Part shown: positions 13,600-36,843 of the stretch, piece after piece | How the letters are laid out: each line of letters starts with the position of its first letter | Numbering within the stretch: position 1 is the first letter of the stretch | From: Sinosporangium siamense | GTDB lineage: Bacteria; Actinomycetota; Actinomycetes; Streptosporangiales; Streptosporangiaceae | Length of the DNA: 64,000 nt | Assembly (NCBI RefSeq): GCF_016863435.1 | Contig: NZ_BOOW01000004.1 | Span: 1 to 64,000, forward strand | Reading direction: 5' to 3' | Translations under genes and position numbers: made by a program | The notes under the pieces: model-generated | Databases searched by the model: none | What the model saw: the letters and a program-made list of their open reading frames with translations, nothing else | Told to the model about the DNA's origin: nothing

Positions 13600-13643
13600 C
13601 GTTGTACCCTCCTACGTCTCATGCGCGCTGTGCAGGGCGTGGG

Positions 13644-14625: not shown

Positions 14626-14664
14626 AGACATGTCGGCAACCCGCAATCTGCGCATTAATCGATG

Positions 14665-14684: not shown

Positions 14685-14804
14685 GACGAGATCCAATAAG
14701 GTGGCAGGGGTTGCCGAGTAAGGCGGATCAAACTCCCGTTTGTGTTGCCGGCTCGCCGGCGGTAGGCCGAGCACAAAGAAGGCGGGGCTGCCTGGGTGTC
14801 CCGA

Positions 14805-20149: not shown

Positions 20150-20226
20150 CTTCAACACTGGAAATCACTCGCCTGTCCACTACTTGTGCCGCCTCCGGCG
20201 GTTCTGCCGGAGGCGGCGGGGGCGCG

Positions 20227-22358: not shown

Positions 22359-23165
22359 ATGACGCTGGAAGACCACCCTCAAATCCCGCTCGGTGTGCCC
22401 ACTGCCGCGCGCATGTACGACGAGGCGCTGGGCGGCAAGGATCACTTTGAGGTCGACAGGCAGGCCAACGCCAGGTTGTACACCGCGATCGGGGAGGACC
22501 GGGTCCGGTCCACCGCCATGGAGAACAGGCGGTTCCTCGGGCGTGCGGTGCGTTACCTGTCCCAGGAGTGCGGCATTCGCCAGTTCCTGGATGTGGGGTC
22601 CGGTCTGCCGACCGCGCGTAACACCCACCAGATCGCCAAGGAGGTCGATCCCGGCTCGCGGGTGGTCTACGTCGACATCGACCCGATCGTGGCCGTGCAC
22701 GGCAGGGCGTTGCTCGCCGACGACAACACCAGGATCGTGACCGCGGACATGCGCCGTCCGGAGAGCATTCTGGACAACGACGAGGTCAACGGGTTTCTCG
22801 ATTTCGGCAGGCCGCTGGCGGTGCTGTTCGTCGCGGTGTTCCACTTCGTCACGCCGGAGGACGACCCGGGGCGCATCGTGGCGGCCTTCCGCGAGCGGCA
22901 GGTGCCGGGGTCCTATGTGGCGATCTCCCACCTGACGACCGACGGCATGTCCGAGCAGGAGCAGCAGGGGTGGTATGCCGGGTTCACCGGTGCGACCGTG
23001 CCGCTGGTGCTCAGAAGCGAGCCGGAGATCCGGCGGGTCTTCGAGGGCTACGACCTCGTCGAGCCTGGTTTGGTGCGCCCCTGCGACTGGCATCCCGACG
23101 AGGAGGACTGGCCCCGCACCACCTCTCTCTTCGGTGGTGTCGGCCGCCTGGGCCCCACCTCCTGA
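22359..23165 (+). CDS. SAM-dependent methyltransferase, PF04672 (DUF574) type
   Basis: 268 residues. The family signature opens the protein: PTAARMYDEALGGKDHFEVD, then NRRFLGRAVRYLSQECGIRQ, the SAM loop FLDVGSGLPTARNTHQIA, and VVYVDIDPIVAVHGRALLA. This family is expanded in actinomycetes, often near regulators or secondary-metabolism genes, and its substrate is unknown. The ATG start sits about 10 nt past GAGGAG. A strong terminator follows. Confidence 0.92.
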   Translation: MTLEDHPQIPLGVPTAARMYDEALGGKDHFEVDRQANARLYTAIGEDRVRSTAMENRRFLGRAVRYLSQECGIRQFLDVGSGLPTARNTHQIAKEVDPGSRVVYVDIDPIVAVHGRALLADDNTRIVTADMRRPESILDNDEVNGFLDFGRPLAVLFVAVFHFVTPEDDPGRIVAAFRERQVPGSYVAISHLTTDGMSEQEQQGWYAGFTGATVPLVLRSEPEIRRVFEGYDLVEPGLVRPCDWHPDEEDWPRTTSLFGGVGRLGPTS

Positions 23166-23182
23166 CCCCCGTAAAGCACGCG

Positions 23183-23214
23183 AAGGCTCCGGACACGTCC
23201 GGAGCCTTTCGTTT
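23183..23214 (+). terminator. rho-independent terminator
   Basis: A perfect 11-bp stem AAGGCTCCGGA/TCCGGAGCCTT with a CACG loop and a following TCGTTT lies just after the methyltransferase. It insulates the 23.4-36.6 kb locus. Confidence 0.92.
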
Positions 23215-23401
23215 GCGAGCCCCAGGCCGGGAAGTCCCCTGGGGGACAAGAAATGATCAACAGTAGATTCCCCCCTCCTGTCCTCCCCCCAACTATTGGG
23301 GATGTTCCACGCCAACCCCCCCTTCTCAGAATCGAGTCATGGGTGTCCGGTGGGGGCTTGACGGCACGGCGCCCAGGTGTCGATGGGATGGGCGGAATGG
23401 A

Positions 23402-25726
23402 ATGTCGCGGACATTGGAATCGATCAGGGGGGCGGTCGGCCGGGCGCTGATCCTGGTGGTCCTCCTGGCCCAGGGAGCACCCCCCGCCTGGGCGGAGGCG
23501 GCAACGGAGTCCGGCGGCGGGGTGCCGGGCCCCAGGGACGACCTGCCGGTGCAGATCGTGGTGCTGGTGGACCAGTCGGGCAGCCTGACCCCGGCGGCGG
23601 TGGAGGCCGAGCGTGAGGCCGCCTCCCGCATCGCGCAGAGCGCGATCCGGCCGGGCACGTCGGTCGCGGTGCTGGGGTTCGCCAGCGCGCCGGCCGAGGG
23701 GCAGACGAGTGTCGACCGCATCTGCCCGCTGCTGAAGACCGACGACGAGATCGGCAAGCAGCGGCTCAGCGAGTGCGTGCGCGATATCCGGGGACGCACC
23801 GAGCGGGAGGGCGACGACACCGACTTCGTGGAGGCCTTCCGCACCGCCCGCGACGTGTTCGCCTCGTCTCCGGACAGGGAGGCGCACCGCGCGGTTTTCC
23901 TCCTCACCGACGGCAGGCTGGACGTCGGGGATAACGCCGTCTACGGCGACGGCACCCGGGCGCAGCGCGACGCGCGGGCGGAGAAGGCGCTGTTCGAGGA
24001 GGTGCTGCCCGCCCTGAAGCAGGACGGGGTCCAGGTCTGGCCGCTCGGATTCGGCGAGGCCGACCGCGTGAAGCTGAAGGAATACGCGGCGGCGGGCGCC
24101 CAGGACACCTGCAACGCGAACGCGCCCGAGCCGCGGGCGATCGTCGTGGGCGGGCCGGGCGAGGTGCATGCGGCGGTGGACGAGGCCTACGAGTCGGTGC
24201 TCTGCCAGCGGGCGGGGCCGATCACCAAGGGGACTCCGCCTCCGGGCGGCCAGACCGACCTTTACGTGGACATCCCGCAGGTGGCGACGACCGGGTCGAT
24301 CGAGGTCGTCAAGAAGGAGCCCAAGATCAGGGTCTCCTACTTCGACCCCGACGGCCGCAAGGTGCCCGACGCAGGATCGCAGGACGAGTCGACGTTCCTG
24401 CGCAGCGGCGGCGACGGCCCGGTCGAGGCGCTGCGCATCACTGACCCGAAGCCCGGCAGGTGGCGCGTCAACCTGGTCGCGCCCGAGGGGGTGGCCGAGC
24501 GCGAGGTGACCGCCAGGATCGTCTGGCAGGGCAGACTCGACTCGATGATCTCGGCCGACCCGCCGGCGCCGGTGCCGGGCAGCCGGGTCACCGTGCAAGT
24601 GCAGTTGCGCACCCGGGTCGACGTCGTCGATCCGGCGGAGTTCGAGGGCATGGTGTTCGCGGCCGAGGTGAGCGGCCGGGACCTGCCGGCGACGCCGATC
24701 GCGCTGAACGACGAAGGCAAGAGCCCGGACCGCACGGCGGGCGACGGGAGGTTCACCGGCGGCTTCGCCGTACCCGCCACCGCCAAAGGCGCCTTCACGG
24801 TGGTCGGCTCGGTCGGCGGCCGGGGCCTGGTCGGCGACAGCAGCCCCTACCACGGGCAGATCTCGCCGACCCCGCCGCCGGTCACCGGGCGGTTCGGCGT
24901 CGACTCGGGAGAGGTCACACCGGGTGCGGCGCTCGCCGGGCGGCTCACACTCCGCAACGTGTCGGGCACGGCGCGGACCTACACGCTGAGGCTCGCCGAG
25001 GTCCGCGAGGACGCCGGGGCGTCGGTCGAGCCGGGGCGGGTGAAGGTGCCCGCCTCGAGCGATGTGACGGTCGACGTGACGCTCCGGTTCGACGAGCGGG
25101 CGGTGCTCGGCCCCGTGTCGGGCCGCATCCAGGCGGTCGCCGGGAAGCAGGACAAGCCGGTCGCCGAGGGGCTGTTCTCCGGCACCCTCGTCGAGCCGCC
25201 GTCACTGCTCGAACGTTTCTGGTGGCTCTTCGGCGCACTCCTCGCCCTGCTGGCGGCCGCGGTCTCCACGCTGGTCGTGCTCGTGCGCGGCAGGCGGCGC
25301 GAGCGCGACGCCCGCGGCCTGACCGCGGTGCTGAGCCGGAACGGCGCGACTCTGCACAGGCTCGACTGCGGCGGCGGGTGGGCCGCCACCTTCCGCTTCT
25401 CGGTGCGCACGGGTGACGGCCCGCCGCGACTCGACCGGTCGCACGGCGGAGCCGACGGCTATGTCGCGTGGCGCACGGACGGCGGCACGATCATGCTGCG
25501 CAAGCCGTACGGCTCTCCGGTGGAGCTCGTCCCTGGGCGCGGCGAGGACATCGGCGACGGCTACTCGCTCGCCGTCGAGGACCGCCGGATGAGCGGCGGG
25601 CCGGGGTACGGCACGAGCCCGGGCGGCCCGGGCGGCATTCACGGCGACGCGCCCCACCCGCCGCCCCCGGGCCCGCCCCCCTCCGGCGCCTCGCGACCTT
25701 GGGGCGGCGACCCCCTGCTCGACTGA
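23402..25726 (+). CDS. membrane-anchored VWA-domain protein of the tubulin-like locus
   Basis: 774 residues. A signal/anchor (about 12-31) leads to a von Willebrand A domain (about 50-230) with a full MIDAS: DQSGS (Asp57, Ser59, Ser61), a DDTDF loop (about 140) and LLTDG (Asp170). Several Ig-like beta domains follow, including APVPGSRVTVQVQ and a NEAT/CARDB-like RLTLRNVSGTARTYTLR. One membrane helix (WWLFGALLALLAAAVSTLVV, about 606-628) and a ~140-residue cytoplasmic tail rich in Gly/Pro end it. It is first of the co-oriented run. The domain should bind a protein partner through a metal ion, outside the membrane. The start is the ATG before SRTLESIRG; an upstream ATG 63 nt earlier is less likely. 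Confidence 0.88.
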   Translation: MSRTLESIRGAVGRALILVVLLAQGAPPAWAEAATESGGGVPGPRDDLPVQIVVLVDQSGSLTPAAVEAEREAASRIAQSAIRPGTSVAVLGFASAPAEGQTSVDRICPLLKTDDEIGKQRLSECVRDIRGRTEREGDDTDFVEAFRTARDVFASSPDREAHRAVFLLTDGRLDVGDNAVYGDGTRAQRDARAEKALFEEVLPALKQDGVQVWPLGFGEADRVKLKEYAAAGAQDTCNANAPEPRAIVVGGPGEVHAAVDEAYESVLCQRAGPITKGTPPPGGQTDLYVDIPQVATTGSIEVVKKEPKIRVSYFDPDGRKVPDAGSQDESTFLRSGGDGPVEALRITDPKPGRWRVNLVAPEGVAEREVTARIVWQGRLDSMISADPPAPVPGSRVTVQVQLRTRVDVVDPAEFEGMVFAAEVSGRDLPATPIALNDEGKSPDRTAGDGRFTGGFAVPATAKGAFTVVGSVGGRGLVGDSSPYHGQISPTPPPVTGRFGVDSGEVTPGAALAGRLTLRNVSGTARTYTLRLAEVREDAGASVEPGRVKVPASSDVTVDVTLRFDERAVLGPVSGRIQAVAGKQDKPVAEGLFSGTLVEPPSLLERFWWLFGALLALLAAAVSTLVVLVRGRRRERDARGLTAVLSRNGATLHRLDCGGGWAATFRFSVRTGDGPPRLDRSHGGADGYVAWRTDGGTIMLRKPYGSPVELVPGRGEDIGDGYSLAVEDRRMSGGPGYGTSPGGPGGIHGDAPHPPPPGPPPSGASRPWGGDPLLD

Positions 25727-25802
25727 CCGGCCCCCGGCCGCGACCGGCCGGGGGCCCGAGACCACGAGACCACATGCACGACCCGAGGGGGTTTCCACCG
25801 CG

Positions 25803-28800
25803 ATGAACATCTACCAGCCGATGCTGTTCGTCGGTCTTGGCGGCACCGGATGCAACATCGGCGCCGCCCTCGAACGGCGCCTGCGGGAGGAGCTGTGCGG
25901 CCCGGACGGCACCGACCTGATGGGCATGTTGCCCGGCCGGGACTATCTCCCGTTCCAGCTCCCCGCCTGCACCCAGTTCGTCTACGCCGACCTCAACGAC
26001 GCCGAACTGGCCCGCATGGAGGAGGCCGTGGTGCCGTCCGCCGAGCATCGTGCGGCGGGGCGGCGCACGACGCACCTGGTGACCGAGCTGGTGCCCCACC
26101 ACGACACCTATCCGGAGGTGGCGCGCAGCCTGCGGGTGAGGATGCCGGCCCTGGTGGGCGGCTGGCTCCCGGCACCCCGGCACGAACCCCGGGTCGCGCC
26201 CCTGCGCAGGGGCGCGGGGCAGCTGCCGACCGTGGCCAGGGCAGCGCTGTTCGAGACGTTCAGGAACGGCCTCGCCGCGGCCAGGGACCCGCTGCGCCGC
26301 GCGATCAGCGAACTGGCGAAGGCCAGAGGCGAGCTGGCCGCGCTGGGCAGCAACAAGGCGCGGCTCGACGCGATGGACATCTACGTCGCGTTCTCCGTCG
26401 CAGGGGGAACGGGCGCGGGCATCTTCTACGACTTCCTCCACCTGATCGGCGACGTCGTCCAGCAGGAGTTCCCCCCCGATTTCAAGGCGCAGATCTATCC
26501 GCTGGTCATCATGCCTTCGGCGTTCCCCGAGGGCAGGGGCGGCGGGCGCAAGGCGGTGCTGAACGCCGGGCGCGGGCTGCTCGACCTGTTCCGGCTGGTC
26601 GACGATCAGAACGGCCAAGCCGCGCTGACCGACCTCGACGGCATGGACGACGAGGTGCTCGGGTCGCTGTCGGTGCGCTACAGCGACGACCGCGACATCC
26701 GGCTGCGGGCCTCGACGATCCAGACGGCCTTCCTCTTCAGCAGCTCGCCGGGCATCGAGCGGGAGGACCTGCACCGCTCGGTCGTCTCGCTGATCCTGTC
26801 GCTGGTCGGCACCGAGATGACCGAGGAGGACCTGGCCGCCCCGGCGGGCGACCGGATGTACGCCTCGTTCGCCGACAGTTTCATCAACGGCAGCGTCGAG
26901 CGGGAGCCGATGGCCCCGACCGGGATCGGACGCCGGGGCGTGTCGACCGGGCTGGTCGCCTCGCTGACGGTGCCGGCCGAGGACCTGGCCGACATCGTCG
27001 CGTCGCGGATGCTGGCGGCGGCGGTGCACGAGCTTTCGGCCTCACCGGCGGCGGGAAGCGAGTCCAACCGCGCTCTGATCGAGCGTTTCCTGGCGGCCGC
27101 GAACCTCCAGCCGCTCACGAACAGAGAGGGGATCCCCTTCAGCGACCCCGCCGCGGACTCGCCCAAGGGCGCCGACGCCATCCAGCGGGCGCTCGGCGAA
27201 CGCCTGCGCCTCATGCAGGGCAACGTGGAGGCGATGAGCCGCCAGCTCCCGCAGCGGGTGCGCGAACTGGCCGGGCGGTTCGACCCGCAGCGGGCGGTGG
27301 AGGAACTGCTGAGCGACATCGACCTGTTCCGGCTGCACCGCGTCGTCGCCGGTGACCCCGCGGCGGCGGACGAGACCGACCGCCTCGGGGTGGACGGCCT
27401 GCTGCGCCGGCGCCGCGAGACGCCGCCCGCCCCACAGGGCCTCGGGATGACGGCGCCGGGGGCTACGCCGCTGCGCGGCCTGCGCCGGTGGCGCTGGAAC
27501 GACGCCGAGGTGCAGCGCCAGGTGTGGGCCCAGGACGCGTGGTATCTGTGGCGCACCCGCTGCCTGTGGAACGAGGCGTGGACGGCGCAGACGCCCTCGT
27601 GGCAGCCGAAGATCGAGCAGTTGCTGCGCCGGCTCGGTGAGTGTGTGGGCGCCTTCCGCAACCACGCCGACCAGGATCCGGTGAGGTTCCGCAGGCGCGT
27701 GGAGGAGCTGTACCGCCCCCGGGCGGGCGTCTGCTACCTGCTGCCCCCGCAGGGCAAGGATCTGCGGCTCTTCTACCAGAACACCGTGGGGAGGTTCGCC
27801 GAGCGGTTCGCGGGGGACGGCATGTCGCCAAACGCCTCCGAGGGTGTCGTCGTCGCGCGGCTGCTGCGGGACGACTGGTGGAAGGTGTTCGCCGGCGGCA
27901 GGGACCGCGGCCCCGCCGTGGCGCTGGAGGCGGCCCTCGACCAGATCAAGCCCGAGGTGACCAAGATCTTCCGGCGCCGGTCGGGGGACCAGCGCCCGCT
28001 GCTGCCCGAGATGGCCGACCTGCTCGCCCAGGCGGCGGGCAAGACCCACGGCAAGGTGTCGGCGGAGGACCTCGGGCAGTTCAGGCAGGACCTCGCGGCG
28101 CTGCTTCCCGGCGGCTTCTCCCCGCAGGGCACCGGCGCCCTGCGCGTGCTCATCACCTATCCCGCGGGCGCCGTGGACGCCGACCTCGAACGCTACATCG
28201 AGGGCCGGCTCAACCTGCCGCGCACCCGGGGCCTCACCCCCGAATACCGCCCGGTCGGCAGCGAGTCCATCACCGTCGTGCTGTTCAGGACCGCGATGGG
28301 CGTGACCGAGGTGCCCGAGCTGCGGGACGTGCTGCACCAGTGGGCGCTCGCGCTCAAGCACGAGCGGGCCGAGGACTACCTGCAGTGGCGTCAGCGCCTC
28401 GGCTTCGACTACGGCTATCTCGCCACCACCCCCGAACACCGCGAGGCGATCCTGCACCGCTTCCTCAGCGCCCTCTGGAACGGCCAGGTCGCCGTCAGGC
28501 CGGGGGACGACCCCTCGTCCCCGAGCCGCGTCACCGTCCGGCTGCGGGCGTCGGACACCACCACGATGACGCTGCCGCTCACCCCGTTCGAACGAGCCTC
28601 CTCCTGGGGCAGCGTCATCCGGGCCTACGAGGAATGGGTGATCAAGGACGACCAGCTCACCCGGCGGGAGTTCTGCGAGGAGCTGATGGAGATCACCCCG
28701 GAAGGGCTGGAGACCCGCCCGAGCCCGCCGCACGAGCTTTACAACCTCGTCGTCGGGATGGCCCCGAAGCAGCAGGAACTCCTGGAGGAGATGGTGGAGG

Positions 28801-28961
28801 ACCTGCCGCCTTCGGCCCGCGCCTGGGCCGAGATGCTCCTCGAGTTCTGGCGCACCACCCTTCCCCGGGCGCTGCGCCACGACTTCGTCCGGGTCGCCCG
28901 CCCCGTACGGCACAACCTCTACGAGCTGGAGCGGGAGGTGCGCGGACGTGGCGTCATCTAG
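25803..28961 (+). CDS. tubulin/FtsZ-like GTPase (Tubulin_2-type), 1052 residues
   Basis: The N-terminus (MNIYQPMLFVGLGGTGCN) has the nucleotide-binding loop GLGGTGCN (residues 11-18) and a tubulin signature GGTGAG at 201-206 within VAFSVAGGTGAGIFYDFLH, so it has the fold of tubulin/FtsZ GTPases. Only the first ~400 residues are tubulin-like; the other ~650 are unique, helical and charged. The protein is more than twice the length of FtsZ. It is soluble with no membrane segment. FtsZ-like proteins of this kind, with a VWA protein and a separate GTPase next door, were described as a putative membrane-remodelling system. It is expected to polymerise; I infer that from the family. It overlaps the next gene by 14 nt. 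Confidence 0.88.
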   Translation: MNIYQPMLFVGLGGTGCNIGAALERRLREELCGPDGTDLMGMLPGRDYLPFQLPACTQFVYADLNDAELARMEEAVVPSAEHRAAGRRTTHLVTELVPHHDTYPEVARSLRVRMPALVGGWLPAPRHEPRVAPLRRGAGQLPTVARAALFETFRNGLAAARDPLRRAISELAKARGELAALGSNKARLDAMDIYVAFSVAGGTGAGIFYDFLHLIGDVVQQEFPPDFKAQIYPLVIMPSAFPEGRGGGRKAVLNAGRGLLDLFRLVDDQNGQAALTDLDGMDDEVLGSLSVRYSDDRDIRLRASTIQTAFLFSSSPGIEREDLHRSVVSLILSLVGTEMTEEDLAAPAGDRMYASFADSFINGSVEREPMAPTGIGRRGVSTGLVASLTVPAEDLADIVASRMLAAAVHELSASPAAGSESNRALIERFLAAANLQPLTNREGIPFSDPAADSPKGADAIQRALGERLRLMQGNVEAMSRQLPQRVRELAGRFDPQRAVEELLSDIDLFRLHRVVAGDPAAADETDRLGVDGLLRRRRETPPAPQGLGMTAPGATPLRGLRRWRWNDAEVQRQVWAQDAWYLWRTRCLWNEAWTAQTPSWQPKIEQLLRRLGECVGAFRNHADQDPVRFRRRVEELYRPRAGVCYLLPPQGKDLRLFYQNTVGRFAERFAGDGMSPNASEGVVVARLLRDDWWKVFAGGRDRGPAVALEAALDQIKPEVTKIFRRRSGDQRPLLPEMADLLAQAAGKTHGKVSAEDLGQFRQDLAALLPGGFSPQGTGALRVLITYPAGAVDADLERYIEGRLNLPRTRGLTPEYRPVGSESITVVLFRTAMGVTEVPELRDVLHQWALALKHERAEDYLQWRQRLGFDYGYLATTPEHREAILHRFLSALWNGQVAVRPGDDPSSPSRVTVRLRASDTTTMTLPLTPFERASSWGSVIRAYEEWVIKDDQLTRREFCEELMEITPEGLETRPSPPHELYNLVVGMAPKQQELLEEMVEDLPPSARAWAEMLLEFWRTTLPRALRHDFVRVARPVRHNLYELEREVRGRGVI

Positions 28962-31233
28962 CGACGTGCAGGCGGTGCTCCTGCTCGACCTGCGCGGCAC
29001 GGACCCGGCCGGGGCCGTGACCCGGCTGGAGGAGGCGGTGGCCTGGCATCGCAGGCACGGCGAGGGGGCCGCGTCGGCTCTCGTCGTGGACGCCGTCGAC
29101 GGTCTGGACGAACGGCACGCGGTCTACGAGCAGGTGGTCCGCAACCGCTTTATCGAGAATATGTTGTGCCTGATCGTCGGCCCCGCCCTGGAACGCGACG
29201 CCGGGCTGGTGCTGCGACTGCCGTCGTCGATGAGCCCGCCGCGGGGGGCGGTGCTCTGGATCTCCGACCCCGAGGGCGTGGGGTGGCGGATGGAGCCGCC
29301 CGGCCCGGCTCTGCCGTACCACACCGCTGAACAGGGACTCGCGAGCCTCGTCGAGGTGCTGCGGGCGCCGGAGGTCTTCCTGCGGGTGTTCACGGCGGTC
29401 TGCGAGGTGCCCGACGGCGTGGCCAGCCCGGGGCTGCGCGTGGTCGCCGACGACGCCGGCGACCGGCTGCTCGCCGGGGCGCGGGCGGCGGCCGTCGCGC
29501 GGCTCACCGACGCCGTCGACGACACGCAGGCCGGAGGGGGGCCGCAGGACCACGGCGGGCTCACCGTCTACACCGGGGGGCGGGACGGCGGGTGGAGTGC
29601 CGAGAGGCTGCTGCGGCCCGGCGGGCGCCTGGCCGAGCAGGACGCGCTCTGCGCCCGCCGCTTCGCCGAGGCCCGGGACACCCTGGCCCGGCTGGGGGGT
29701 CCCCGGGGCGTGTTGTTCAGGGGCAGGGCGTCCCGGCGGGTGACGGGACGTCTGGCGGAGGTGCGTGACGGGCTCGCGGGATACCGCGCGGTGCTGGAGG
29801 ACACCTTCGACCGGATCGACGGCGGCTCGGGGCTCGACCGGGCGGCCCGGGAGGAGCTCAACCGGCTCGGCGTCGCCGCCGACCTGCCGGAGGCGGCCAC
29901 CTCGGGTGTGGTCGACCGGCTGAAAGGGGTGGTGACCGCGGCCCTGGCCGAGCGCACACCGCTTCCGGTGCTGGTCGAGCGGCTGCGGGAGTTCGCCCAC
30001 CGCGCCACGCCCGTCGGCAGCGCGGCCCAGGTGGGCCGCCTCGCCCCCGCGTGTCCCGCGCAACTGCTGAACCGGCTCGGCGAACCCCCGCCCTTCCCGC
30101 TGCGCCTCCACAACCCGGTGCTGCTCGCCGTCGCCCTGGCGGTGGGCTTCCTCACCGGACTCGGCGGGACGGCCGCCGCCGGCGCGGCGGTCGCCCTCTG
30201 GACGGTCCTCGTGTGGTGGTTGTGGAGCCGGGCACCGGAGCCGGGCGGCGAGCGGGGTTTCGGCGGGCGCGGCCGGCTCGTCGTGGCGGTGCACCCCCTC
30301 CTCGGGGCACTGGGCGCCGCGGGCGGCCGGGCACTCGCCGAGGCGGTGCGTCTGCCCGAGTTCGCCGTCTGGGCGGGGTACGGCGCAGCCGCGCTGGCCG
30401 CGCTCCTGGCCCTGCCGTACTGGTGGCGTGAGGCCGTCGCCAGGTGGTGCGACCTCGTCGTGGTCGCCGAGGCCGACATCGCCCGGTCGCGGCTCACCCA
30501 GGTCGCCGCCGAGGTGGCGGCGGCCGAGTGGGTGATCAGCGACGCGCGCAGGATCGCCTCGGACGCGGCGAGGACCGTGGCGGAGGTGCTGGAGCGGTGC
30601 GCCGGCGAGCTGGCCGCGCATGAGCCGCGGCCACTCCGCGACAACCATGCCGGGTACCACCAGGCCGGCTACCACCAGGCCGGACACAGCCAGTCGGGCG
30701 GCGTGCTTGACGCGGTCGCCGAGGACCTCGCCGCCGCTCTTGGCACGGTGCTCGCCGGAGTGTGGCCGAGACTCTCGGAACCGGCCTTCCACGGGCTCGC
30801 CGGGCGGTCCGCCGCGACCCTGGAGGGCCTCCTGGCGGACTACCAGGAGCACTTGGCCCGGTGGGGCGTGCAGCGCCGTCCCGCCTTCTCCCCTCAAGGG
30901 GGAACCGACCGTCACATCGCGCTCAGAGCCACCTGGCCGCGCTCGGCCGAGGCGGAGAACGCGCTGCGCATGGAGACCGGCGACCTGATGCTGCAACTGT
31001 GCCGCGCGGAGGACCTGGCACTGCTCCGGTCCTCCGCCGGAAGCGCGCGGCTCGTCAGGTTCGCCCCCGCCGGACTGCGCGGCGAGCAGGACGGCCTGCA
31101 CGGAGACAGCACAGACGAGACGAAGGACGCCGTCTGGACCAGATCCGGGCGGCACGCCGGTGTGCTGCGGCTCGTGCCGCCCCGGATCGGCACCGTGAAG
31201 GCCTCCGCGCCGGGAGGAGAGGACCGTGGCTGA
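28948..31233 (+). CDS. uncharacterised large membrane protein of the tubulin-like locus
   Basis: 761 residues from a GTG that overlaps the preceding gene by 14 nt. No known domain is recognised. The first ~370 residues are soluble alpha/beta sequence (MASSSDVQAVLLLDLRGTDP). Two to three hydrophobic segments lie at about 390-500 (LLAVALAVGFLTGLGGTAAA and the PEFAVWAGYGAAALAALLAL region). The rest is helical, with a QAGYHQAGYHQAG-type short repeat near residue 570. It would place a large soluble part on each side of the membrane or on the cytoplasmic side. It overlaps the pseudokinase gene by 8 nt. Its constant company with the tubulin-like gene suggests a structural partner. Confidence 0.8.
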   Translation: MASSSDVQAVLLLDLRGTDPAGAVTRLEEAVAWHRRHGEGAASALVVDAVDGLDERHAVYEQVVRNRFIENMLCLIVGPALERDAGLVLRLPSSMSPPRGAVLWISDPEGVGWRMEPPGPALPYHTAEQGLASLVEVLRAPEVFLRVFTAVCEVPDGVASPGLRVVADDAGDRLLAGARAAAVARLTDAVDDTQAGGGPQDHGGLTVYTGGRDGGWSAERLLRPGGRLAEQDALCARRFAEARDTLARLGGPRGVLFRGRASRRVTGRLAEVRDGLAGYRAVLEDTFDRIDGGSGLDRAAREELNRLGVAADLPEAATSGVVDRLKGVVTAALAERTPLPVLVERLREFAHRATPVGSAAQVGRLAPACPAQLLNRLGEPPPFPLRLHNPVLLAVALAVGFLTGLGGTAAAGAAVALWTVLVWWLWSRAPEPGGERGFGGRGRLVVAVHPLLGALGAAGGRALAEAVRLPEFAVWAGYGAAALAALLALPYWWREAVARWCDLVVVAEADIARSRLTQVAAEVAAAEWVISDARRIASDAARTVAEVLERCAGELAAHEPRPLRDNHAGYHQAGYHQAGHSQSGGVLDAVAEDLAAALGTVLAGVWPRLSEPAFHGLAGRSAATLEGLLADYQEHLARWGVQRRPAFSPQGGTDRHIALRATWPRSAEAENALRMETGDLMLQLCRAEDLALLRSSAGSARLVRFAPAGLRGEQDGLHGDSTDETKDAVWTRSGRHAGVLRLVPPRIGTVKASAPGGEDRG

Positions 31234-32236
31234 ACAACTCTGGTTTCTGTCGCCCGAGGGCGTGCCGCACACCTGGGAGATCGCCGAGGCCGACGTGGGC
31301 GCCGTGCCGGTGCCCGAGGGCTCGCTCACGGCGATACGGCGGGTCAAGCGCGCCGGCGACGGGATGACGCTGGTGCGGAAATACGTGCCGATCGGGGTCG
31401 GGGCCATGCGGCCCGAGGCGTACGAGCAGCTGGAGAACGAGATCCGCATCGCGCTGCGGCTGCTGCACCGGCTGGGCGACTCCGCCTATCCCCGGGAGCT
31501 CGTCCGCGTCGTGGGCTACGACGCCGACGCCGAGGAGCCGTTCATCCTCTATGAGGACTTCCCCGGCGAGCCCATCCTGAGCAGGGCCGGCAAACTCCAC
31601 TCGCGGGAGGAGCGGAAGGCCGTGATCGGCCTGTTCCGCGCCGCCGACGCGATGAGGGCGGCAGGCGTCGTCCACGGCGGCATCGAGCCCGCGACCGTCT
31701 ACTGGAGCGACTCCGGCGGGGTGCGGGTGGTCTCCTTCGAGGGCGCCGCCGTCGTAGACCAGGACCGCTGGAGCGTCCCCCGCGGCGCGCCCTGGGCGGC
31801 GCCCGAGCTGCGGGGCGAGGCACCGGCGCCGCCGCACCCCTCGGCCGATGTGTGGAGCGCCGCGATGCTGACGTATTACGTCGTCACCGCACGCAAGGTC
31901 GACGACAGGCAGGAGCCCGCCCTCCACACGATGGGGGAGGCACTCCAGCACTGGCTGGCCGGCACGTTCGTGCCGGCGGGGGACCGCGTCACCGCGAGGA
32001 CGGTGCTTGAGCGGTTGAAAGAGGGACGGGCCCTGCTGCCGAAGGGCGAGAACTTCGAGGCGCGGCTGCGCGAGGGAGGGGCACGCTTCGACGACGCGCT
32101 CGCCGCCAAACGCAGCCGGCACCGGCCGGTGACGACGGCGTCGCCACCGCGCCGGACCGGCCTGTGGATCGCCCTGCTCGTCACCCTGATCGCGGTCGTG
32201 GCCGGGGTGGCGGCCGTCGCCGTCCTCGTGAACTAG
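31226..32236 (+). CDS. membrane-anchored protein kinase-like protein, catalytically degenerate
   Basis: 336 residues, GTG start overlapping the previous stop. A kinase-like fold is visible: a candidate ATP-site Lys at about 52 (LVRKYVP), LRLLHRLGDSAYPRELVRVVG, the hinge FILYEDFPGEP, then HGGIEPATVYW at 150 in place of HRDLKPxN, SFEG at 170-173 in place of DFG, and APEL. Both catalytic Asp residues are missing, so it is most likely a pseudokinase that binds rather than phosphorylates. One C-terminal transmembrane helix (LWIALLVTLIAVVAGVAAV) tail-anchors it. Confidence 0.82.
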   Translation: MAEQLWFLSPEGVPHTWEIAEADVGAVPVPEGSLTAIRRVKRAGDGMTLVRKYVPIGVGAMRPEAYEQLENEIRIALRLLHRLGDSAYPRELVRVVGYDADAEEPFILYEDFPGEPILSRAGKLHSREERKAVIGLFRAADAMRAAGVVHGGIEPATVYWSDSGGVRVVSFEGAAVVDQDRWSVPRGAPWAAPELRGEAPAPPHPSADVWSAAMLTYYVVTARKVDDRQEPALHTMGEALQHWLAGTFVPAGDRVTARTVLERLKEGRALLPKGENFEARLREGGARFDDALAAKRSRHRPVTTASPPRRTGLWIALLVTLIAVVAGVAAVAVLVN

Positions 32237-32245
32237 GGAGGGACC

Positions 32246-33313
32246 ATGCCGAGAAACACCGAGCCTCCGGAGAGGCTCGTCTCCTGCCCCACCTGCCTGG
32301 ACGCGATCCCGTGGCGGGACGGCACGTTGTTCGAGCTCGTCGGCGGCGAGTACAAGCCGTTCGCCCCCGGCACGATCAAGGGCGCGGAGAAACTGCGGGA
32401 CAAGCTCAGAACCTCCTACAAGCTGTGCCCCAACCCGTCGGACGACACCACCGAGCACTACATTCCCGCCGCCTACGCGCAATATGACGACCCGCTGCTC
32501 ATCGGCCTCGTCGGCACCACCCGCGCGGGCAAGTCGCACCTGCTCGCCGCCATGCTCGCCGAGGTCGAGAGCCAGGCCCTCCAGCCCTTCGGGGTGAGCG
32601 CGGCGGCACTGGACATCGAGCGGCACAAGGCGTTCATGAACATCTATGTCCAGCAGTTCATCGGGCGGGGCAACCTGCTGTCGTGGACCGCGCACAACCT
32701 CATCGAGGCGGCGGACGCGCTGATCCTCACCGCGGGGGGCCGCACCCGGGTCATGTCGTTCTTCGACGTGTCGGGTGAGGACTTCACCCAGTCGGGCAGG
32801 CACGCCAGGTTCCTCGCCGCGGCGCACGGGCTGATCTTCGTCGCCGATCCCACACTCGCCGTGCCCGGCATGGTGCCGGGCACGACGCAGCCCGCGCACC
32901 GCCGCGACGAGGCGTTCGGCGCGGTGATGGACCGCCTGCGCCTTTCCGGCGCGCTCAGCGACGTGGCCACCACCATCGCCGTCGCCAAGTCCGACCTGCT
33001 GCGCTTCACTCCGCCGGCCGACCGATGGCTGCGTGAACCCGTGCCGCACGGAACGCTCGACCCCGCCGCGATCGAGGCCGAGAGCCGCGACGCCTACGCG
33101 TTCCTCGACGCCCACGGGGCCACCGCGTGGTTGCGGCCGTTCCACGACGTCAAACGGTCCACTCTGCACTTCGTCTCCGCCATGGGCGCCAACCCGCGGG
33201 GCGAGTCGTTGCCCCGGGGCGCGAGACCCAAGCGGGTGCTTATGCCGCTGCTCTCGCTCCTGGCCATGACCGGGGTGTTACCCGGGCCGGCCGCCGCGGA
33301 GGTGGGGTGGTGA
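32246..33313 (+). CDS. zinc-ribbon P-loop GTPase of the tubulin-like locus
   Basis: 355 residues. The N-terminus has CPTC (about 13) and a second Cys cluster (KLCPN, about 60), likely a zinc ribbon. The TRAFAC-like GTPase domain shows Walker A GTTRAGKS (90-97), Walker B/switch II DVSGED (174-179), and AKSD (247-250) as the base-specificity motif in place of NKxD. This fits the double-GTPase (DO-GTPase2-like) families predicted in bacterial conflict or regulatory systems. It has no membrane segment. The ATG follows the pseudokinase stop by 9 nt. The next gene starts within its stop codon (GTGA). Confidence 0.82.
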   Translation: MPRNTEPPERLVSCPTCLDAIPWRDGTLFELVGGEYKPFAPGTIKGAEKLRDKLRTSYKLCPNPSDDTTEHYIPAAYAQYDDPLLIGLVGTTRAGKSHLLAAMLAEVESQALQPFGVSAAALDIERHKAFMNIYVQQFIGRGNLLSWTAHNLIEAADALILTAGGRTRVMSFFDVSGEDFTQSGRHARFLAAAHGLIFVADPTLAVPGMVPGTTQPAHRRDEAFGAVMDRLRLSGALSDVATTIAVAKSDLLRFTPPADRWLREPVPHGTLDPAAIEAESRDAYAFLDAHGATAWLRPFHDVKRSTLHFVSAMGANPRGESLPRGARPKRVLMPLLSLLAMTGVLPGPAAAEVGW

Positions 33314-34887
33314 ACGACGAGGTCATCGACCAGATCGTCTTCTCGTGGAGTGAATACGGCCCGTACGGCAGAGGCCTCGGCGCCCAGGCCACCTCCCTGG
33401 CCAAGAGCGACCTCGACTACTGGAACGAGCACCTGCGCGGCTTCGCCGGCATGGTGAACGCCGGGTTCGTCACGCGGCCCGCGCACAGTCTCTGCTACGT
33501 GGTGATCGGCACCGAGGCCGCCCTGCTGCACCGCACCCGCGGCGCCGATCCGCTGTCCAGATCGGAGGTCGCCCACGCCCTCGTCGGCCCCGTGGCGGAG
33601 CTGACCGCCCGGCTCTCGCTCGGGTTGTCCCGCTGGCCGTGGGTGATGACGGCGGACCTCGCCGAAGGCGTCCCGCTGAGCATGCCCCCCGTCGGGCTGG
33701 CGGATCTGGCCGACGCCTGCGACCGGGCGATCGACCGGGTGGAGACGCGCGCCCGGCGGGCGGGCGACCAGTTGCGGCCGATGCTCGCCGCGGCCCTCGC
33801 CCAGCCGGGGGAGCCGCTGTCGGTCATCACCCAGGGCGACGACCCCGAGCCGCTCACCTGGGGCATGATCGAGATCCTGGACCCGCTCTACTCCGGCAGC
33901 GACCTGGACACCACCTGGCGGTGGACGTTCTCCACCTATGAGACCAGGCACGATCCGGGGCGGCTCTGGATGCCGAACCTGCTGTTCATGCCGGTACGGC
34001 CCGGCGGCGGGGTACGGCGGCGCATCGTCGACCTGGCCGACGGGGTCGTCCCCGGCGACCCGCTGCTGAACGCCGTGGACAGCCTCCTCGACGCCTACGG
34101 CCAGGGCGGCGGGCGGCGGGTACGCGAACTGCTGGATGAGTGCGGGGCGAGGACGCCCCACTCGGTGCGTGACCGGGTCGCGGCACTGGCGGCGGGCACC
34201 ATCCCCCGGGCCTCCCGGCCCCCGCAGGCCGAACTCGCCGAGTGGCCGGCCGCCGCGGTCTCAGGGGACCTCCTGGCCCCCGAGGGGATCGCGGCGTACC
34301 GGTGGCCCGTGTGGCCGGAGGTGCCGCCTTATGCGCCACCCGTGCAGCCGGAGCCGGTGCGGTTCGAGGACGCTCCGGAGGACGAGGGGCACGAACATTC
34401 CGAGGTGACTGAGGCGCCTGGGCCGCTTGAGCCGGAACCTGGCGGGGAGTCGCAAGAGCCGGCGGAGACAGAGCCGACAGCGACAGAGCCGCTGGAGACA
34501 CAGCCGGCGGAGAAGGCTGCGCCCCCCGGCGGCGAGGTCCTTAAACCGCACCTGACACCCCCGCCCGGCCCCCGGCTACAGGGTCGCCCTCGGCGCAAAG
34601 AAGGCTCCCGCCGTACGCACGACCGGGAGGACGATCTCCAGCGCATCGCCGACAAGCGCACCCCGGAGGAGGAGACCTACGAGCTGGCCCGCAGGCTCGC
34701 CGGAGACGGCTGGAACGCCGAGGTATACGCGGCGCTCGGCAAACGCTGGTGGGACGAGCACGAGCAGGACACGCTCGTGCGGGACAGGCTGCCGCTCGGC
34801 CTCTCCCAGGGGCACTACGTGATCCTGCTGGTCGTCGGCTCCGTGGTGCTGGTCGCCTTCGCGCTGCTGGGGGGACAGGTCCGGTGA
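33310..34887 (+). CDS. GTPase-associated protein (GAP1-like) with C-terminal anchor
   Basis: 525 residues from a GTG that overlaps the GTPase stop. The start DQIVFSWSEYGPYGRGLGAQ resembles the N-terminal domain of GTPase-associated protein 1 (GAP1-N), which always accompanies the TRAFAC-type GTPases; this is a pattern match from memory. Helical middle, then an acidic Pro/Glu-rich stretch (EPAETEPTATEPLETQPAEK) to a basic linker, and a C-terminal transmembrane helix (YVILLVVGSVVLVAFALLG). It is expected to be the GTPase's partner or regulator at the membrane. Its stop overlaps the next start. Confidence 0.72.
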   Translation: MNDEVIDQIVFSWSEYGPYGRGLGAQATSLAKSDLDYWNEHLRGFAGMVNAGFVTRPAHSLCYVVIGTEAALLHRTRGADPLSRSEVAHALVGPVAELTARLSLGLSRWPWVMTADLAEGVPLSMPPVGLADLADACDRAIDRVETRARRAGDQLRPMLAAALAQPGEPLSVITQGDDPEPLTWGMIEILDPLYSGSDLDTTWRWTFSTYETRHDPGRLWMPNLLFMPVRPGGGVRRRIVDLADGVVPGDPLLNAVDSLLDAYGQGGGRRVRELLDECGARTPHSVRDRVAALAAGTIPRASRPPQAELAEWPAAAVSGDLLAPEGIAAYRWPVWPEVPPYAPPVQPEPVRFEDAPEDEGHEHSEVTEAPGPLEPEPGGESQEPAETEPTATEPLETQPAEKAAPPGGEVLKPHLTPPPGPRLQGRPRRKEGSRRTHDREDDLQRIADKRTPEEETYELARRLAGDGWNAEVYAALGKRWWDEHEQDTLVRDRLPLGLSQGHYVILLVVGSVVLVAFALLGGQVR

Positions 34888-36626
34888 GCCGTCTCTGGTG
34901 GCCCGTCCCGCCCATGCTGCTGCTGGCGCTCTTCGCCCTCGTGTACGTCGACCGGCTCGCCGCGCATCGGCCGTGGCTGACTCTCCCCTCGGCGGCGCTT
35001 CTAGCGAGCCTGGTGGGGTTCATCCTCTTGGCGTTGTGCCTGGTGTGGAACCGTGACCGGCGCGTCCGGGGGCGTGCGCCCGCGCTGAGCGGCCCGGTCA
35101 CGGTGGCGGGTTCGTTCGTCCTGGTGGGGCCGCTGCTGGGGCTCGCGACGCTCGACACCGGTTATGCCACGCTCGCCCTCGTCCCTGTCGTGGGTGTTCT
35201 CGCGTTGTTCGCGGGGATCGAGTTCGCGGTCAGGCGCCCGAGTGCCCGTCTCCTGCGGCGGGTGTGCCTCGGGCTCGCCGCCGTCGCCCTGGCCGTGGAC
35301 CTCGGGCCCTACGAGGGGGCGGGCGCGGTCGCCGTGCTGTTCACGGCCCTGCTCGGCCTGGTCGCCGCGCGGCCGCACGTGCCGGTGCCCGCCCTGGACG
35401 CCGTGACCCGCGTCTGCTGGCCCGCCGTACCCGCCTGCTGCCTGCTTCTCTACACCCGGGACCCGGGCGTGGGGGTGATGTTCACGGCGGGCGCGTGCGC
35501 GGTGCTGACGGCGCGGGCATGCGCCCGGGGACGCCTGCGCGCCCTGGGGGAGACGTGCGCCGCGCTCGTGCTGATCGCCGCGACCGCGTGGTGGTTGTGG
35601 CCGCTCCCGGCAGCAGGTACGGCATGGGCCCCCGGGATGTTCGCCCGCGGACCCGGCCGCGCGGCCGGCCTCGGCACCTCTCTCGCGCAGATCGGGGGCG
35701 AGCTCGGCGCGGTGGGTCTGGCCGCTGTGCTGACGATGCTGCTGGTGCTGTTCGCGTGGGCCTTCGTGCGTCTGCGGCCGGCGCTGTCGCCGCCGGTCAC
35801 CGTGTTCGCGGCCGGCGGCCTCGCCGGTCTGGTGGCAGGGACGCTCTACTCCGCGGCCCTCCCCGGGCTGCCCTCGGCGCTGGCCCCGCTGCTCCCGGCG
35901 CGTGACCCGGCGGTGGCCGTCGCCGGGATGGCGCTGGTGGGGCTCGTGATCGGCGGTGCGGACCGTCCCACCGGTCGCGGGCGCGTGTTGTCCACACCGT
36001 TCCCGGCGATGGTGACGGCCACGTTGCTCGTCGTGTCGGTGGTGCTGCCCAGCGGATTCGCGACCGGGAAGGGCACGCTGCGGTACGCCGGAGGCCAGGT
36101 GGCCGGCGGCGGCGAAGCGTGGCACAAGGCGCTGAGCGAGACCGTCCGCCCATACCTCGACTGCGGGGGAGGCGACGCGGAGTGCCGTCCAGGTGAGGTG
36201 ACGTTGTCGCTGGACATCACGCTGCAGGAGGCGGCGGAGAAGGCACTCGGGCTCTTCAAGGGAGCCGTGGTGATCGCCGACGGGGAGAGCTTCACCCCGC
36301 TCGGGCGCGGCAGGCCGCTCGGGGTCGCGGCGCATCCGGAATTCCCGGTCGGCGCGCTGGTGCCCGACCTTTGCCGGTGGCTGGTGACCGGGGACCGGAA
36401 GGGGCGGGTCTGTGCGGTGTCGGCGGCTCCGGCCGTGCGGTCCGGGTTGTTCGAGGCCGCGCTGAGCGGTGGGGACTGCCGGTGTGAGGTGTTGTGGTTC
36501 AACAAGTTCGGCGACCGAATGCTGATCGGTTTCCTGGAGAAGCCGGACTTGGGCCCCTGGAAAAAGGAGTTGTGCGACAGCCGTGCATTCGATGTCGCGT
36601 TTTGCACGTCGAGTGATGGTGAGTGA
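34884..36626 (+). CDS. SEDS (FtsW/RodA)-like membrane protein fused to degenerate penicillin-binding domain
   Basis: 580 residues from the GTG overlapping the upstream stop. About ten hydrophobic segments fill residues 8-395. SEDS-like features are LLLYTRDPGVGVMF, matching the LQPDLGTA segment of FtsW, and a GLGTSLAQIGGELGAVGLAA stretch (Glu273), matching the IGEELG motif. The ~170-residue extracytoplasmic C-terminus opens with TLSLDITLQEAAEKALG (Asp444), the hallmark start of PBP transpeptidase domains. It then has GAVVIAD and a FPVGALVPD in the place of the PPGSxFK motif: the catalytic SxxK Ser and Lys are absent. It should be a dead PBP. A wall-synthesis-linked role is inferred. Confidence 0.78.
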   Translation: MSRLWWPVPPMLLLALFALVYVDRLAAHRPWLTLPSAALLASLVGFILLALCLVWNRDRRVRGRAPALSGPVTVAGSFVLVGPLLGLATLDTGYATLALVPVVGVLALFAGIEFAVRRPSARLLRRVCLGLAAVALAVDLGPYEGAGAVAVLFTALLGLVAARPHVPVPALDAVTRVCWPAVPACCLLLYTRDPGVGVMFTAGACAVLTARACARGRLRALGETCAALVLIAATAWWLWPLPAAGTAWAPGMFARGPGRAAGLGTSLAQIGGELGAVGLAAVLTMLLVLFAWAFVRLRPALSPPVTVFAAGGLAGLVAGTLYSAALPGLPSALAPLLPARDPAVAVAGMALVGLVIGGADRPTGRGRVLSTPFPAMVTATLLVVSVVLPSGFATGKGTLRYAGGQVAGGGEAWHKALSETVRPYLDCGGGDAECRPGEVTLSLDITLQEAAEKALGLFKGAVVIADGESFTPLGRGRPLGVAAHPEFPVGALVPDLCRWLVTGDRKGRVCAVSAAPAVRSGLFEAALSGGDCRCEVLWFNKFGDRMLIGFLEKPDLGPWKKELCDSRAFDVAFCTSSDGE

Positions 36627-36690
36627 GTCTTTTCGGGCTGTCGTGTAGCTTTGGTGGTCTCGGTGGGCCTAAAGCTAACTTTCAGCTTGC

Positions 36691-36716
36691 CCACCCGGGG
36701 GGCCCATGACGGGTGG
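36691..36716 (+). terminator. hairpin after SEDS-PBP-like gene
   Basis: 7-bp stem CCACCCG/CGGGTGG with a GC-rich loop follows the last gene of the run by 65 bp. No T-run; a possible terminator. Confidence 0.35.
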
Positions 36717-36843
36717 AATGGGGTTGGACAGACTTCGATAACCGACTTATCCCGATTCCTAGGTATTCTCTTGAGTGATCCGTGACGCTGTGGTACTTCC
36801 ATCTGGGGAGCTGCACAAATGGCTGCCCCGATGAGGAGGCGCT

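What the first reader, a model, noticed from the sequence alone, without database searches (positions are those of the whole stretch)
23402..36626. Tubulin/FtsZ-like GTPase in a seven-gene membrane locus with VWA, GTPase, pseudokinase and wall-synthase-like fusion
Seen: seven genes on one strand, six of them overlapping or under 10 nt apart. They encode a MIDAS-bearing VWA protein with one membrane helix, a 1052-residue protein with GLGGTGCN and GGTGAG loops, a large membrane protein, a tail-anchored pseudokinase, a zinc-ribbon P-loop GTPase, a tail-anchored partner, and an SEDS/PBP-like fusion. Known (from memory): a FtsZ-tubulin family in operons with a VWA protein, a distinct GTPase and OmpA-like proteins was proposed as a membrane-remodelling system (Makarova and Koonin). 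Here there is no OmpA-type protein, as expected for a monoderm; instead a SEDS/PBP-like fusion is present. Inference: an alternative divisome or a cell-envelope/defence machine specific to actinomycetes.
Basis: partly seen in the sequence, partly recalled or inferred. Interest (0 to 1): 0.88.

Follow-up and report, generated by a model that had tools for sequence, protein, structure and literature searches.

The report
Tubulin-like operon with wall-synthase mimic
A filamentous soil bacterium carries a compact set of genes for a membrane-linked, tubulin-like protein machine that looks like an accessory stress or defence system; one of its parts appears to be a wall-building enzyme whose active sites have been lost.

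Summary
Seven same-strand genes (23402-36626) encode VWA, Tubulin_2, protein C, pseudokinase, GTPase, tail-anchored F and polytopic G. A-F recur in order in 19 further loci long enough to show them and in Nonomuraea gerenzanensis, kept out of the profiles. The kind is published: FtsZl1+VWA+kinase+GTPase operons (Makarova and Koonin 2010) and tubulin/DO-GTPase/GAP1-N2/VWA systems (Kaur 2020). New here: E is a DO-GTPase2; F resembles a diverged GAP1 (hhalign 92%, but 9.8% without one bridging sequence); D lacks a complete catalytic triad in 19 of 19; optional G (8 of 20 complete loci) belongs to a SEDS-class B PBP fusion family without the aligned catalytic Asp and SxxK. The genome keeps canonical ftsZ and three SEDS genes, and orthologs are patchy (10 of 149 relatives, own included), so 'alternative divisome' is unlikely. 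Best reading: an accessory, GTP-switched, membrane-attached tubulin-like assembly for envelope surveillance or conflict, in which G jams, baits or senses the wall machinery. The tubulin fold was not confirmed by my models; function is untested. New variant of a known kind.

The parts
23402..25726 (+). A: leader segment, VWA with MIDAS loop, further region, one TM helix, C-terminal part with Pro-rich tail (alternative start 23339)
   Evidence: PF00092 40.3 bits, PF13519 36.7 bits; NCBIfam choice_anch_X 30.4 bits over cut-off 25; ortholog family
25803..28961 (+). B: Tubulin_2 (FtsZl1-type) protein, N-terminal domain 8-408 plus long C-terminal part
   Evidence: PF13809 E 2.2e-57 over 8-408; 24 of 24 members of A3 match PF13809 and 15 of 24 weakly match PF00091 (E up to 1, best 0.0058)
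28948..31233 (+). C: unknown protein with hydrophobic middle segment, conserved at this position
   Evidence: orthologs by blast/HMM; no Pfam family; no convincing PDB match, best 0.0035
31226..32236 (+). D: pseudokinase with C-terminal helix
   Evidence: Pkinase 26.5 bits, below cut-off 31.7; profile of 17 orthologs finds kinases in PDB, best 1.6e-16; complete catalytic triad in 0 of 19
32246..33313 (+). E: DO-GTPase2-type GTPase with CPTC, Walker A GTTRAGKS, DVSGED, AKSD
   Evidence: PF19993 28.9 bits over cut-off 27; 17 of 18 aligned orthologs match PF19993 at E <= 0.1; motifs
33310..34887 (+). F: GAP1-like protein (diverged GAP1-N2/M-like region) with C-terminal helix
   Evidence: hhalign to GAP1 proteins 92% over 214 columns with a bridging sequence, 9.8% without; controls at most 0.2% for the F profile; Pfam GAP1 not seen for 18 members (first 25 of 31 families shown)
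34884..36626 (+). G: optional member of a SEDS-class B PBP fusion family, active sites apparently lost; PBP part truncated
   Evidence: window G alone vs the other G proteins 97.3% over 476 columns; family profile vs RodA 8tj3_B 1.2e-6 and PBP 4mnr 7.9e-7; residues

Best explanation
An accessory branch, so far seen in actinomycetes, of the tubulin-containing DO-GTPase/GAP1 systems. Shown by sequence: conserved six-gene core (VWA, Tubulin_2, C, pseudokinase, DO-GTPase2, GAP1-like protein) plus an optional SEDS-PBP fusion that appears catalytically dead. Inferred mechanism: the anchored VWA protein and C read a state of the envelope; the DO-GTPase, held near the membrane by its GAP1-like partner and tied to the pseudokinase, acts as a GTP switch; the tubulin-like protein then assembles as a scaffold; where present, G acts on the wall synthases as a non-catalytic mimic (jamming, baiting or sensing them). 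The outcome would be local or whole-cell arrest or remodelling of the envelope under attack or stress. My estimates: identity as a variant of this known kind 0.85; accessory rather than divisome 0.85; defence/conflict role 0.4; envelope-stress role without defence 0.35.
For: PF13809 and VWA matches; DO-GTPase2 in 17 of 18 and match of the E profile to GTPase genes beside GAP1 genes in 4 of 4 GAP1 loci read, best 5.8e-25; F to GAP1 92% with the bridge and negative controls; a bona fide GAP1-N2 tubulin operon (L108: PF13809 157.5 bits, PF20013 73.4 bits, PF20014 37.2 bits, DO-GTPase2 23.9 bits just below cut-off, VWA_2 21.4 bits below cut-off), its VWA and tubulin proteins, pooled with those of similar loci, being profile-related to A and B (98% each); D and E in one open frame in 2 of 20 complete loci, L044 and L059; G homology and residues; canonical ftsZ and SEDS genes elsewhere in the genome; patchy orthologs, own genome included: 10 of 149 relatives and 21 of 394 class genomes, 19 of them close; variable interval in a same-genus relative. 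Kaur et al. 2020 (PMC7159879; sections 27 and 29, part 1 of 2 of section 35, and passages) predict such systems to be conflict systems and note inactive enzyme versions in several of them.
Against: No experiment on a member appeared in the listed rows of my literature searches. PADLOC shows nothing for A, B, C, F, G; D matches kinase models (MkoA 5.8e-9, PD-T4-6 3.7e-8) and E mad8 weakly (0.0028), which I take as general kinase and GTPase likeness. The B tree follows families fairly well, more like vertical inheritance with losses than the mobility expected of a defence system; no phage record matches B and the only plasmid-collection hit is an 11.85-Mb record. F misses Pfam's GAP1 in the 18 members shown and the GAP1 link depends on one bridge. 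C and the C-like protein of the other type are not detectably related (0.7%). Structure models of B and G are low confidence; B finds no tubulin in PDB. The window pair of G (with L015) matches SEDS at only 1.2% directly, and near the SEDS catalytic column L016 and L017 carry Glu and L051 and L052 an Asp one residue away.
Confidence: 0.55

Rival explanations
1. Membrane-remodelling or vesicle machine in the sense of Makarova and Koonin: the tubulin-like protein bends or divides membrane as a housekeeping or developmental function (for example sporangium or spore formation), unrelated to invaders.
For: VWA, kinase-like and GTPase neighbours as described for FtsZl1 (PMC2875224, parts 1 and 2 of 5 read); carriers with a name are Streptosporangiaceae, Frankiaceae and Streptomycetaceae, which I recall as mycelial sporulating groups; tree largely follows families.
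Against: Patchy: 10 of 149 relatives have it and the one same-genus genome listed (G001) lacks it; loss of catalytic residues in D and apparently in G fits scaffold or mimic roles.
Confidence: 0.3
2. Alternative divisome or wall-synthesis complex: B makes a second Z-ring-like polymer that drives a dedicated SEDS-PBP synthase G.
For: G belongs to a SEDS-PBP fusion family by profile beside a tubulin-like gene.
Against: G lacks Asp at the aligned SEDS catalytic column in 8 of 8 and the SxxK in 7 of 7 aligned PBP parts (Glu in two and a neighbouring Asp in two others at the SEDS site), is absent from 12 of 20 complete loci, and the genome keeps ftsZ, three SEDS and twelve transpeptidase matches.
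Confidence: 0.05
3. The stronger form of the best explanation: a phage or conflict defence system proper, in which infection is sensed at the envelope and triggers tubulin-like assembly and abortive arrest (overlaps with the best explanation, so the odds do not add up to one).
For: Family resemblance to the Kaur 2020 systems; inactive enzyme versions D and G; variable chromosomal interval next to tRNA-Met.
Against: No defence-library match that I take as specific; no mobile carriage found; no experimental test of such a system in the rows listed.
Confidence: 0.4

Closest known systems
FtsZl1 (Tubulin_2, PF13809) operons, Makarova and Koonin 2010 (PMC2875224)
   Same: Tubulin_2 protein of about 1050 aa with VWA, protein-kinase-like and diverged GTPase neighbours and membrane-bound companions; GTPases sometimes with a cysteine-rich domain.
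   Different: No OmpA-type protein; kinase-like protein lacks the triad; SEDS-PBP mimic in some loci; that paper proposes membrane remodelling and does not describe these extras in the parts I read (parts 1 and 2 of 5; its additional files were not read).
GAP1-N2-type DO-GTPase systems, tubulin theme, Kaur et al. 2020 eLife (PMC7159879)
   Same: Single tubulin-domain protein with a long C-terminal part, membrane-bound VWA protein, DO-GTPase with cysteine ribbon followed by a GAP1-like protein with a C-terminal helix.
   Different: GAP1 too diverged for Pfam; a pseudokinase stands between C and the GTPase, where the GAP1-type operon L108 has a 681-aa protein after its C-like gene; SEDS-PBP fusion not mentioned in the parts read (sections 27, 29, part 1 of 35, passages); B forms a deep separate branch.
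FtsW/RodA with class B PBP (SEDS-bPBP wall synthases)
   Same: The G family has a SEDS-like bundle followed by a transpeptidase-like domain, in that order (on one chain, except two neighbouring frames in L052 and no PBP part in the L016 frame).
   Different: Aligned catalytic Asp and SxxK are gone; in the window protein most of the transpeptidase domain is gone too.
HSP70/GrpE-type GAP1-N2 system in the same genome (L078, G000:C49)
   Same: DO-GTPase-like genes next to GAP1.
   Different: HSP70- and GrpE-like genes instead of tubulin and VWA; two DO-GTPase-like genes (HSP70/GrpE named by eye from the sequence).

Membership tests
FtsZl1 / Tubulin_2 (PF13809) | Match to PF13809 over its full length | tested here: met
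   195.4 bits, cut-off 27, profile 1-355 of 356; 24 of 24 members of A3
FtsZl1 / Tubulin_2 (PF13809) | GTP-binding loops T1 and T4 of the tubulin superfamily | tested here: met
   G11, G13, G14, G16 and A200, G201, G202, G204 invariant in 24 aligned sequences; the Thr of each loop varies in the distant type
FtsZl1 / Tubulin_2 (PF13809) | Tubulin/FtsZ fold | tested here: inconclusive
   AF2 with 5 sequences pLDDT 53, N-terminal domain mostly under 50; PDB profile search finds no tubulin; hhalign to actinobacterial FtsZ 1.5-2.5% (0.2% for the distant type), in the run shown aligning the GAG..P.VGR and GGTG.G motifs; PF00091 weak in 15 of 24
FtsZl1 / Tubulin_2 (PF13809) | Operon with VWA, kinase-like and GTPase genes | tested here: met
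FtsZl1 / Tubulin_2 (PF13809) | OmpA-type partner (in several genomes only, not defining for all) | tested here: not met
   no Pfam OmpA match in the seven proteins
GAP1-N2-type DO-GTPase system (Kaur 2020) | DO-GTPase with zinc ribbon and Walker B glutamate | tested here: met
   PF19993 28.9 bits over cut-off 27, 17 of 18 aligned members; DVSGE, CPTC; second cysteine pair incomplete
GAP1-N2-type DO-GTPase system (Kaur 2020) | GAP1-N2/GAP1-M protein next to the GTPase | tested here: inconclusive
   Pfam GAP1 not among the 25 of 31 families shown for 18 members; hhalign 92% E 6e-7 with bridge L084, 9.8% E 0.003 without; controls at most 0.2%
GAP1-N2-type DO-GTPase system (Kaur 2020) | Membrane-bound VWA protein and single tubulin protein (actinobacterial theme) | tested here: met
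   profile 98% to the pooled VWA and tubulin proteins of the other type; one PF13809 match in the genome
GAP1-N2-type DO-GTPase system (Kaur 2020) | FNIII-repeat/HRDC protein | tested here: not met
   no such Pfam match in the seven proteins
SEDS-class B PBP wall synthase | SEDS and transpeptidase homology in order | tested here: met
   family level: L054 PF01098 32.0 bits over 26.4; profile of seven G proteins to RodA 1.2e-6 and PBP 7.9e-7; window G joins this family at 97.3%. Against: window G with L015 finds SEDS at 1.2% and PBP at 89.9% over 41 columns, alone 0.5% and 10.1%, and nothing in PDB
SEDS-class B PBP wall synthase | Catalytic Asp (FtsW D297 equivalent) | tested here: not met
   no Asp at the aligned column in 8 of 8 G proteins (gap in the window protein and L015, Glu in L016 and L017, other residues in L051-L054, with an Asp one residue away in L051 and L052); present in 3 of 3 SEDS of this genome. 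Alignment approximate. D297 as putative catalytic residue from PMC8765783 passages
SEDS-class B PBP wall synthase | SxxK active-site serine | tested here: not met
   absent at the aligned place in 7 of 7 G proteins with a PBP part, present in 6 of 6 PBPs of this genome; S..K strings occur elsewhere in L016, L052, L053, L054 and KTG/KSG strings in L053, none in the window protein
Active protein kinase | beta3 Lys, HRD Asp, DFG Asp together | tested here: not met
   0 of 19 aligned D proteins; the two D-E fusions L044 and L059 were not in this alignment

The most novel reading that the evidence does not exclude
G is a natural dominant-negative wall synthase: a SEDS-PBP mimic that still binds lipid II or divisome/elongasome partners but cannot polymerise, released or positioned by the tubulin-like GTPase assembly to stop septal or polar wall growth in an infected or damaged hyphal compartment. 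This would be a programmed arrest system that works by poisoning the cell's own wall machine with a dead copy. Support by analogy: E. coli FtsW D297A is dominant-negative and scored positive for substrate and FtsI binding (PMC8765783 passages).
Probability: 0.2. Interest if true: 0.85.

Novelty: new variant of a known kind. Interest (0 to 1): 0.6.

Why it matters
Tubulin_2 proteins occur in diverse bacteria and archaea (Makarova and Koonin), and no functional study appeared among the rows listed by my searches of the open-access library (listings were capped). This locus ties the 2010 membrane-remodelling idea and the 2020 conflict-system idea to one gene set with a defined, small, conserved core, and adds a SEDS-PBP fusion that looks dead, which makes the function testable: does it stop wall synthesis, and when?

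Tried and rejected
Alternative divisome: rejected as main reading because canonical division genes are present and G appears catalytically dead. Known defence system by library: no match that I take as specific. Structure prediction of B and G: low confidence, so no fold search was run. B profile against PDB: five hits up to E 10, none a tubulin. B against FtsZ by hhalign: not significant. C against PDB and against the C-like protein: nothing convincing. First G test failed: a profile of the other G proteins built by hmmbuild found no window protein up to E 10; profile-profile comparison did. A PBP alignment with a wrong-strand frame for L065 was used and replaced; the L016/L017 group gave SEDS 25.3% and PBP 0.2-0.7%, not rerun. 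Integrative element: no second copy of 12 or more bases of the tRNA-Met in the window. Mobile carriage: none found.

Rows dropped: L037 equals L015. L045 and L046 (two diverged copies in G032, about 34% identity, A-C only) and L060/L061 (distant) were left out of the family alignments, as were the D-E fusions L044 and L059 (from D and E), a second VWA gene in L048, and from the later alignments some orthologs with poor gene calls (for example L039, L047, L058 from F; L040 from E).

Full report
What is there. Seven genes on the + strand fill 23402-36626. Spacing is that of a coupled operon: after a 76-nt gap between A and B, every junction overlaps or is 9 nt, with the starts I chose. The scan of 22900-37200 found no sigma-70-type promoter and one terminator-like site, on the - strand (2.5 expected by chance), which says little for this GC-rich organism. 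The start of G that I prefer is 34884, in a GTGA overlap with the stop of F, so G is 580 aa rather than 625.

Protein by protein. A: VWA with intact MIDAS loop, one membrane helix. B: Tubulin_2, E 2.2e-57. C: no family. D: kinase-like below Pfam's cut-off (26.5 bits against 31.7); a profile of 17 orthologs finds kinases in PDB, best 1.6e-16. E: DO-GTPase2, 28.9 bits over the cut-off of 27. F: no plausible family in Pfam. G: FTSW_RODA_SPOVE 10.5 bits, below cut-off; PBP2 13.9 bits in NCBIfam, far below its cut-off of 455.

Conservation. B orthologs were sought in relatives (10 of 149 genomes, own included) and in the class (21 of 394, own included, 19 close and 2 distant; some genomes are in both sets). 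The Tubulin_2 family as such is in 20 of 296 class genomes, 15 of the window's type and 5 of another. One named-genome scan gave four loci: Acrocarpospora phusangensis, Parafrankia soli, Parafrankia colletiae, Streptomyces rimosus. One search covered 28 loci plus the window with profiles of all seven families: A to F are all present on one strand in 20 of 29 (19 loci and the window); one (L039) lacks A because its contig ends; four (L018, L050, L055, L056) are cut by contig ends; L045 and L046, two diverged copies in one genome, show A-C only; L060 and L061 are the distant type. The independent check is Nonomuraea gerenzanensis (L165), in no profile: A, B, C, D, E, F in order, E-values 1.1e-56 or lower, no G. 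G is present in 8 of the 20 complete loci (window, L015, L016, L017, L051-L054).

E and F are a DO-GTPase/GAP1-type pair. 17 of 18 aligned E orthologs match DO-GTPase2 at E 0.1 or better. The E profile finds GTPase genes that flank GAP1 genes in all four GAP1 loci read, best 5.8e-25. F follows E directly and carries a predicted helix in 17 of 18 aligned orthologs (in L017 a small next frame has one). Its N-terminal region has the pattern DQ..FRW..GFGPVA.S, then R..AHVLIG, then WTFST.E, which lines up with GAP1-N2/M: hhalign 92%, E 6e-7 over 214 columns. That figure depends on a bridging GAP1 (L084, PF20013 30 bits); without it the probability is 9.8% and E 0.003. Comparisons of the F profile with A, B, C, D, E and G give at most 0.2%. 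I therefore call F GAP1-like, not GAP1.

A published relative. L108 (G264) is a bona fide GAP1-N2 tubulin operon: a VWA-like protein (21.4 bits, below cut-off), PF13809 157.5 bits, a C-like protein, a 681-aa protein without Pfam match, GAP1-N2 73.4 and GAP1-M 37.2 bits, DO-GTPase2 23.9 bits, below the cut-off of 27. Its A and B equivalents, pooled with those of L109, L060, L061 and, for B, L110, compare with the window families at 98% each (535 and 180 columns), but C and its positional equivalent do not (0.7%). This fits the actinobacterial tubulin theme of Kaur et al. 2020 (sections 27 and 29 read whole, part 1 of 2 of section 35, and passages). In the tree of B the window type forms one deep branch apart from the five proteins of the other type (100/100, long branches).

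Dead enzymes. D: none of 19 aligned orthologs keeps beta3 Lys, HRD Asp and DFG Asp together; 2 of 19 keep the HRD Asp and 8 of 19 the DFG Asp. G: the group L051-L054 matches SEDS at 86% and PBPs at 96% by hhalign; one member, L054, passes Pfam's cut-off for FTSW_RODA_SPOVE (32.0 bits), the other eight proteins of that call do not; a profile of seven G proteins finds RodA across the bundle (8tj3_B, 1.2e-6) and PBPs after it (4mnr, 7.9e-7) among solved structures. The window's G alone joins the other G proteins at 97.3% over 476 columns, while five unrelated polytopic proteins, as single sequences, give at most 0.4% to the G profile and 0.6% to SEDS. Directly, the window protein with L015 finds PBPs at 89.9% over 41 columns but SEDS at only 1.2%, and alone neither (10.1% and 0.5%) nor anything in PDB, so its identity rests on the family. 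No Asp stands at the column of FtsW D297 in 8 of 8: the window protein and L015 have a gap, L016 and L017 Glu, L051-L054 other residues, with an Asp one residue away in L051 and L052. SxxK is missing at the aligned place in 7 of 7 (the L016 frame has no PBP part). The genome's own enzymes keep them in 3 of 3 and 6 of 6. The alignment in these low-identity stretches is approximate, so loss of the PBP site is firmer than loss of the SEDS site outside the window pair.

Is it the cell's division machine? No sign. The genome has canonical ftsZ (G000:C6:157112), three SEDS genes over Pfam's cut-off, one of them about 4 kb from ftsZ, and twelve transpeptidase matches. The one same-genus genome listed, G001, lacks the operon. 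In G001 the DNA on both sides is conserved (window 1784-3974 with tRNA-Met, and from 36735 on), but the 32.8 kb between them in the window is replaced by 11.3 kb without detectable similarity. The replaced stretch also holds other genes, some of which have relatives elsewhere in G001, so this shows a variable interval, not a precise insertion.

How it may work. Shown: composition, order, loss of catalytic residues, one open frame joining D and E in two loci (L044, L059), which suggests that pseudokinase and GTPase touch. Inferred: A and C read the envelope, E is switched by GTP with F and D at the membrane, B assembles, G acts as a mimic. Kaur et al. point to inactive versions of enzymes in several of these systems and compare them with decoys for viral proteins. 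For G, jamming is an alternative: E. coli FtsW D297A is dominant-negative while scored positive for FtsI and substrate binding (passages of PMC8765783). I cannot tell decoy, jammer or sensor apart.

Against the reading. No structure confirms the tubulin fold here; family membership and the published HHpred link (PMC2875224) carry it. A 2023 paper treats Tubulin_2 proteins as a group with an evolutionary history apart from FtsZ/tubulin proper (PMC9871819, passages). The tree groups mostly by bacterial family (four label changes, the fewest possible for five groups, though the families are not each one clean clade), there is no phage match, and the one plasmid-collection match is an 11.85-Mb Nonomuraea record, so rapid horizontal spread is not shown. 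The defence library gives no match that I take as specific.

Novelty. VWA+Tubulin_2+kinase-like+GTPase and tubulin+DO-GTPase+GAP1 are in print. In what I read, and in the rows listed by searches of the open-access library (listings capped), I found no description of the pseudokinase/GAP1-like branch as such or of a dead SEDS-PBP fusion; supplements were not read and most subscription papers are not held.

Noticed in passing
L078 (G000:C49:82000-100500), 6760-16705: The same genome holds a second GTPase-centred system: GAP1-N2 protein between two DO-GTPase-like genes, with HSP70- and GrpE-like genes (the last two named by eye).
   Followed up: partly
window 3974-36735 against L131 (G001) 2045-13385: Variable interval after tRNA-Met: the same-genus relative has instead, among others, a 2000-aa protein with a weak AAA_22 match and a 675-aa metallo-beta-lactamase/beta-CASP protein.
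   Followed up: partly
L044 11936-14086 and L059 11445-13616 (coordinates in the orientation of the operon): Pseudokinase D and GTPase E lie in one open reading frame.
   Followed up: partly
L052 19324-20000 and L053 19484-20000 (coordinates in the orientation of the operon): A further P-loop-like protein with a GKT motif begins after G; it may be a second GTPase, but the E profile did not match it at 1e-4.
   Followed up: no
window 19673-20158: DUF488 protein that matches PADLOC candidate models PDC-M45C and PDC-M19A.
   Followed up: no
NZ_LT559118.1: An 11.85-Mb circular Nonomuraea record is filed as a plasmid; it looks like the chromosome.
   Followed up: no
L045 and L046 (G032): One genome carries two strongly diverged A-B-C sets (about 34% identity in B) without recognisable D, E, F in the DNA held.
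   Followed up: no
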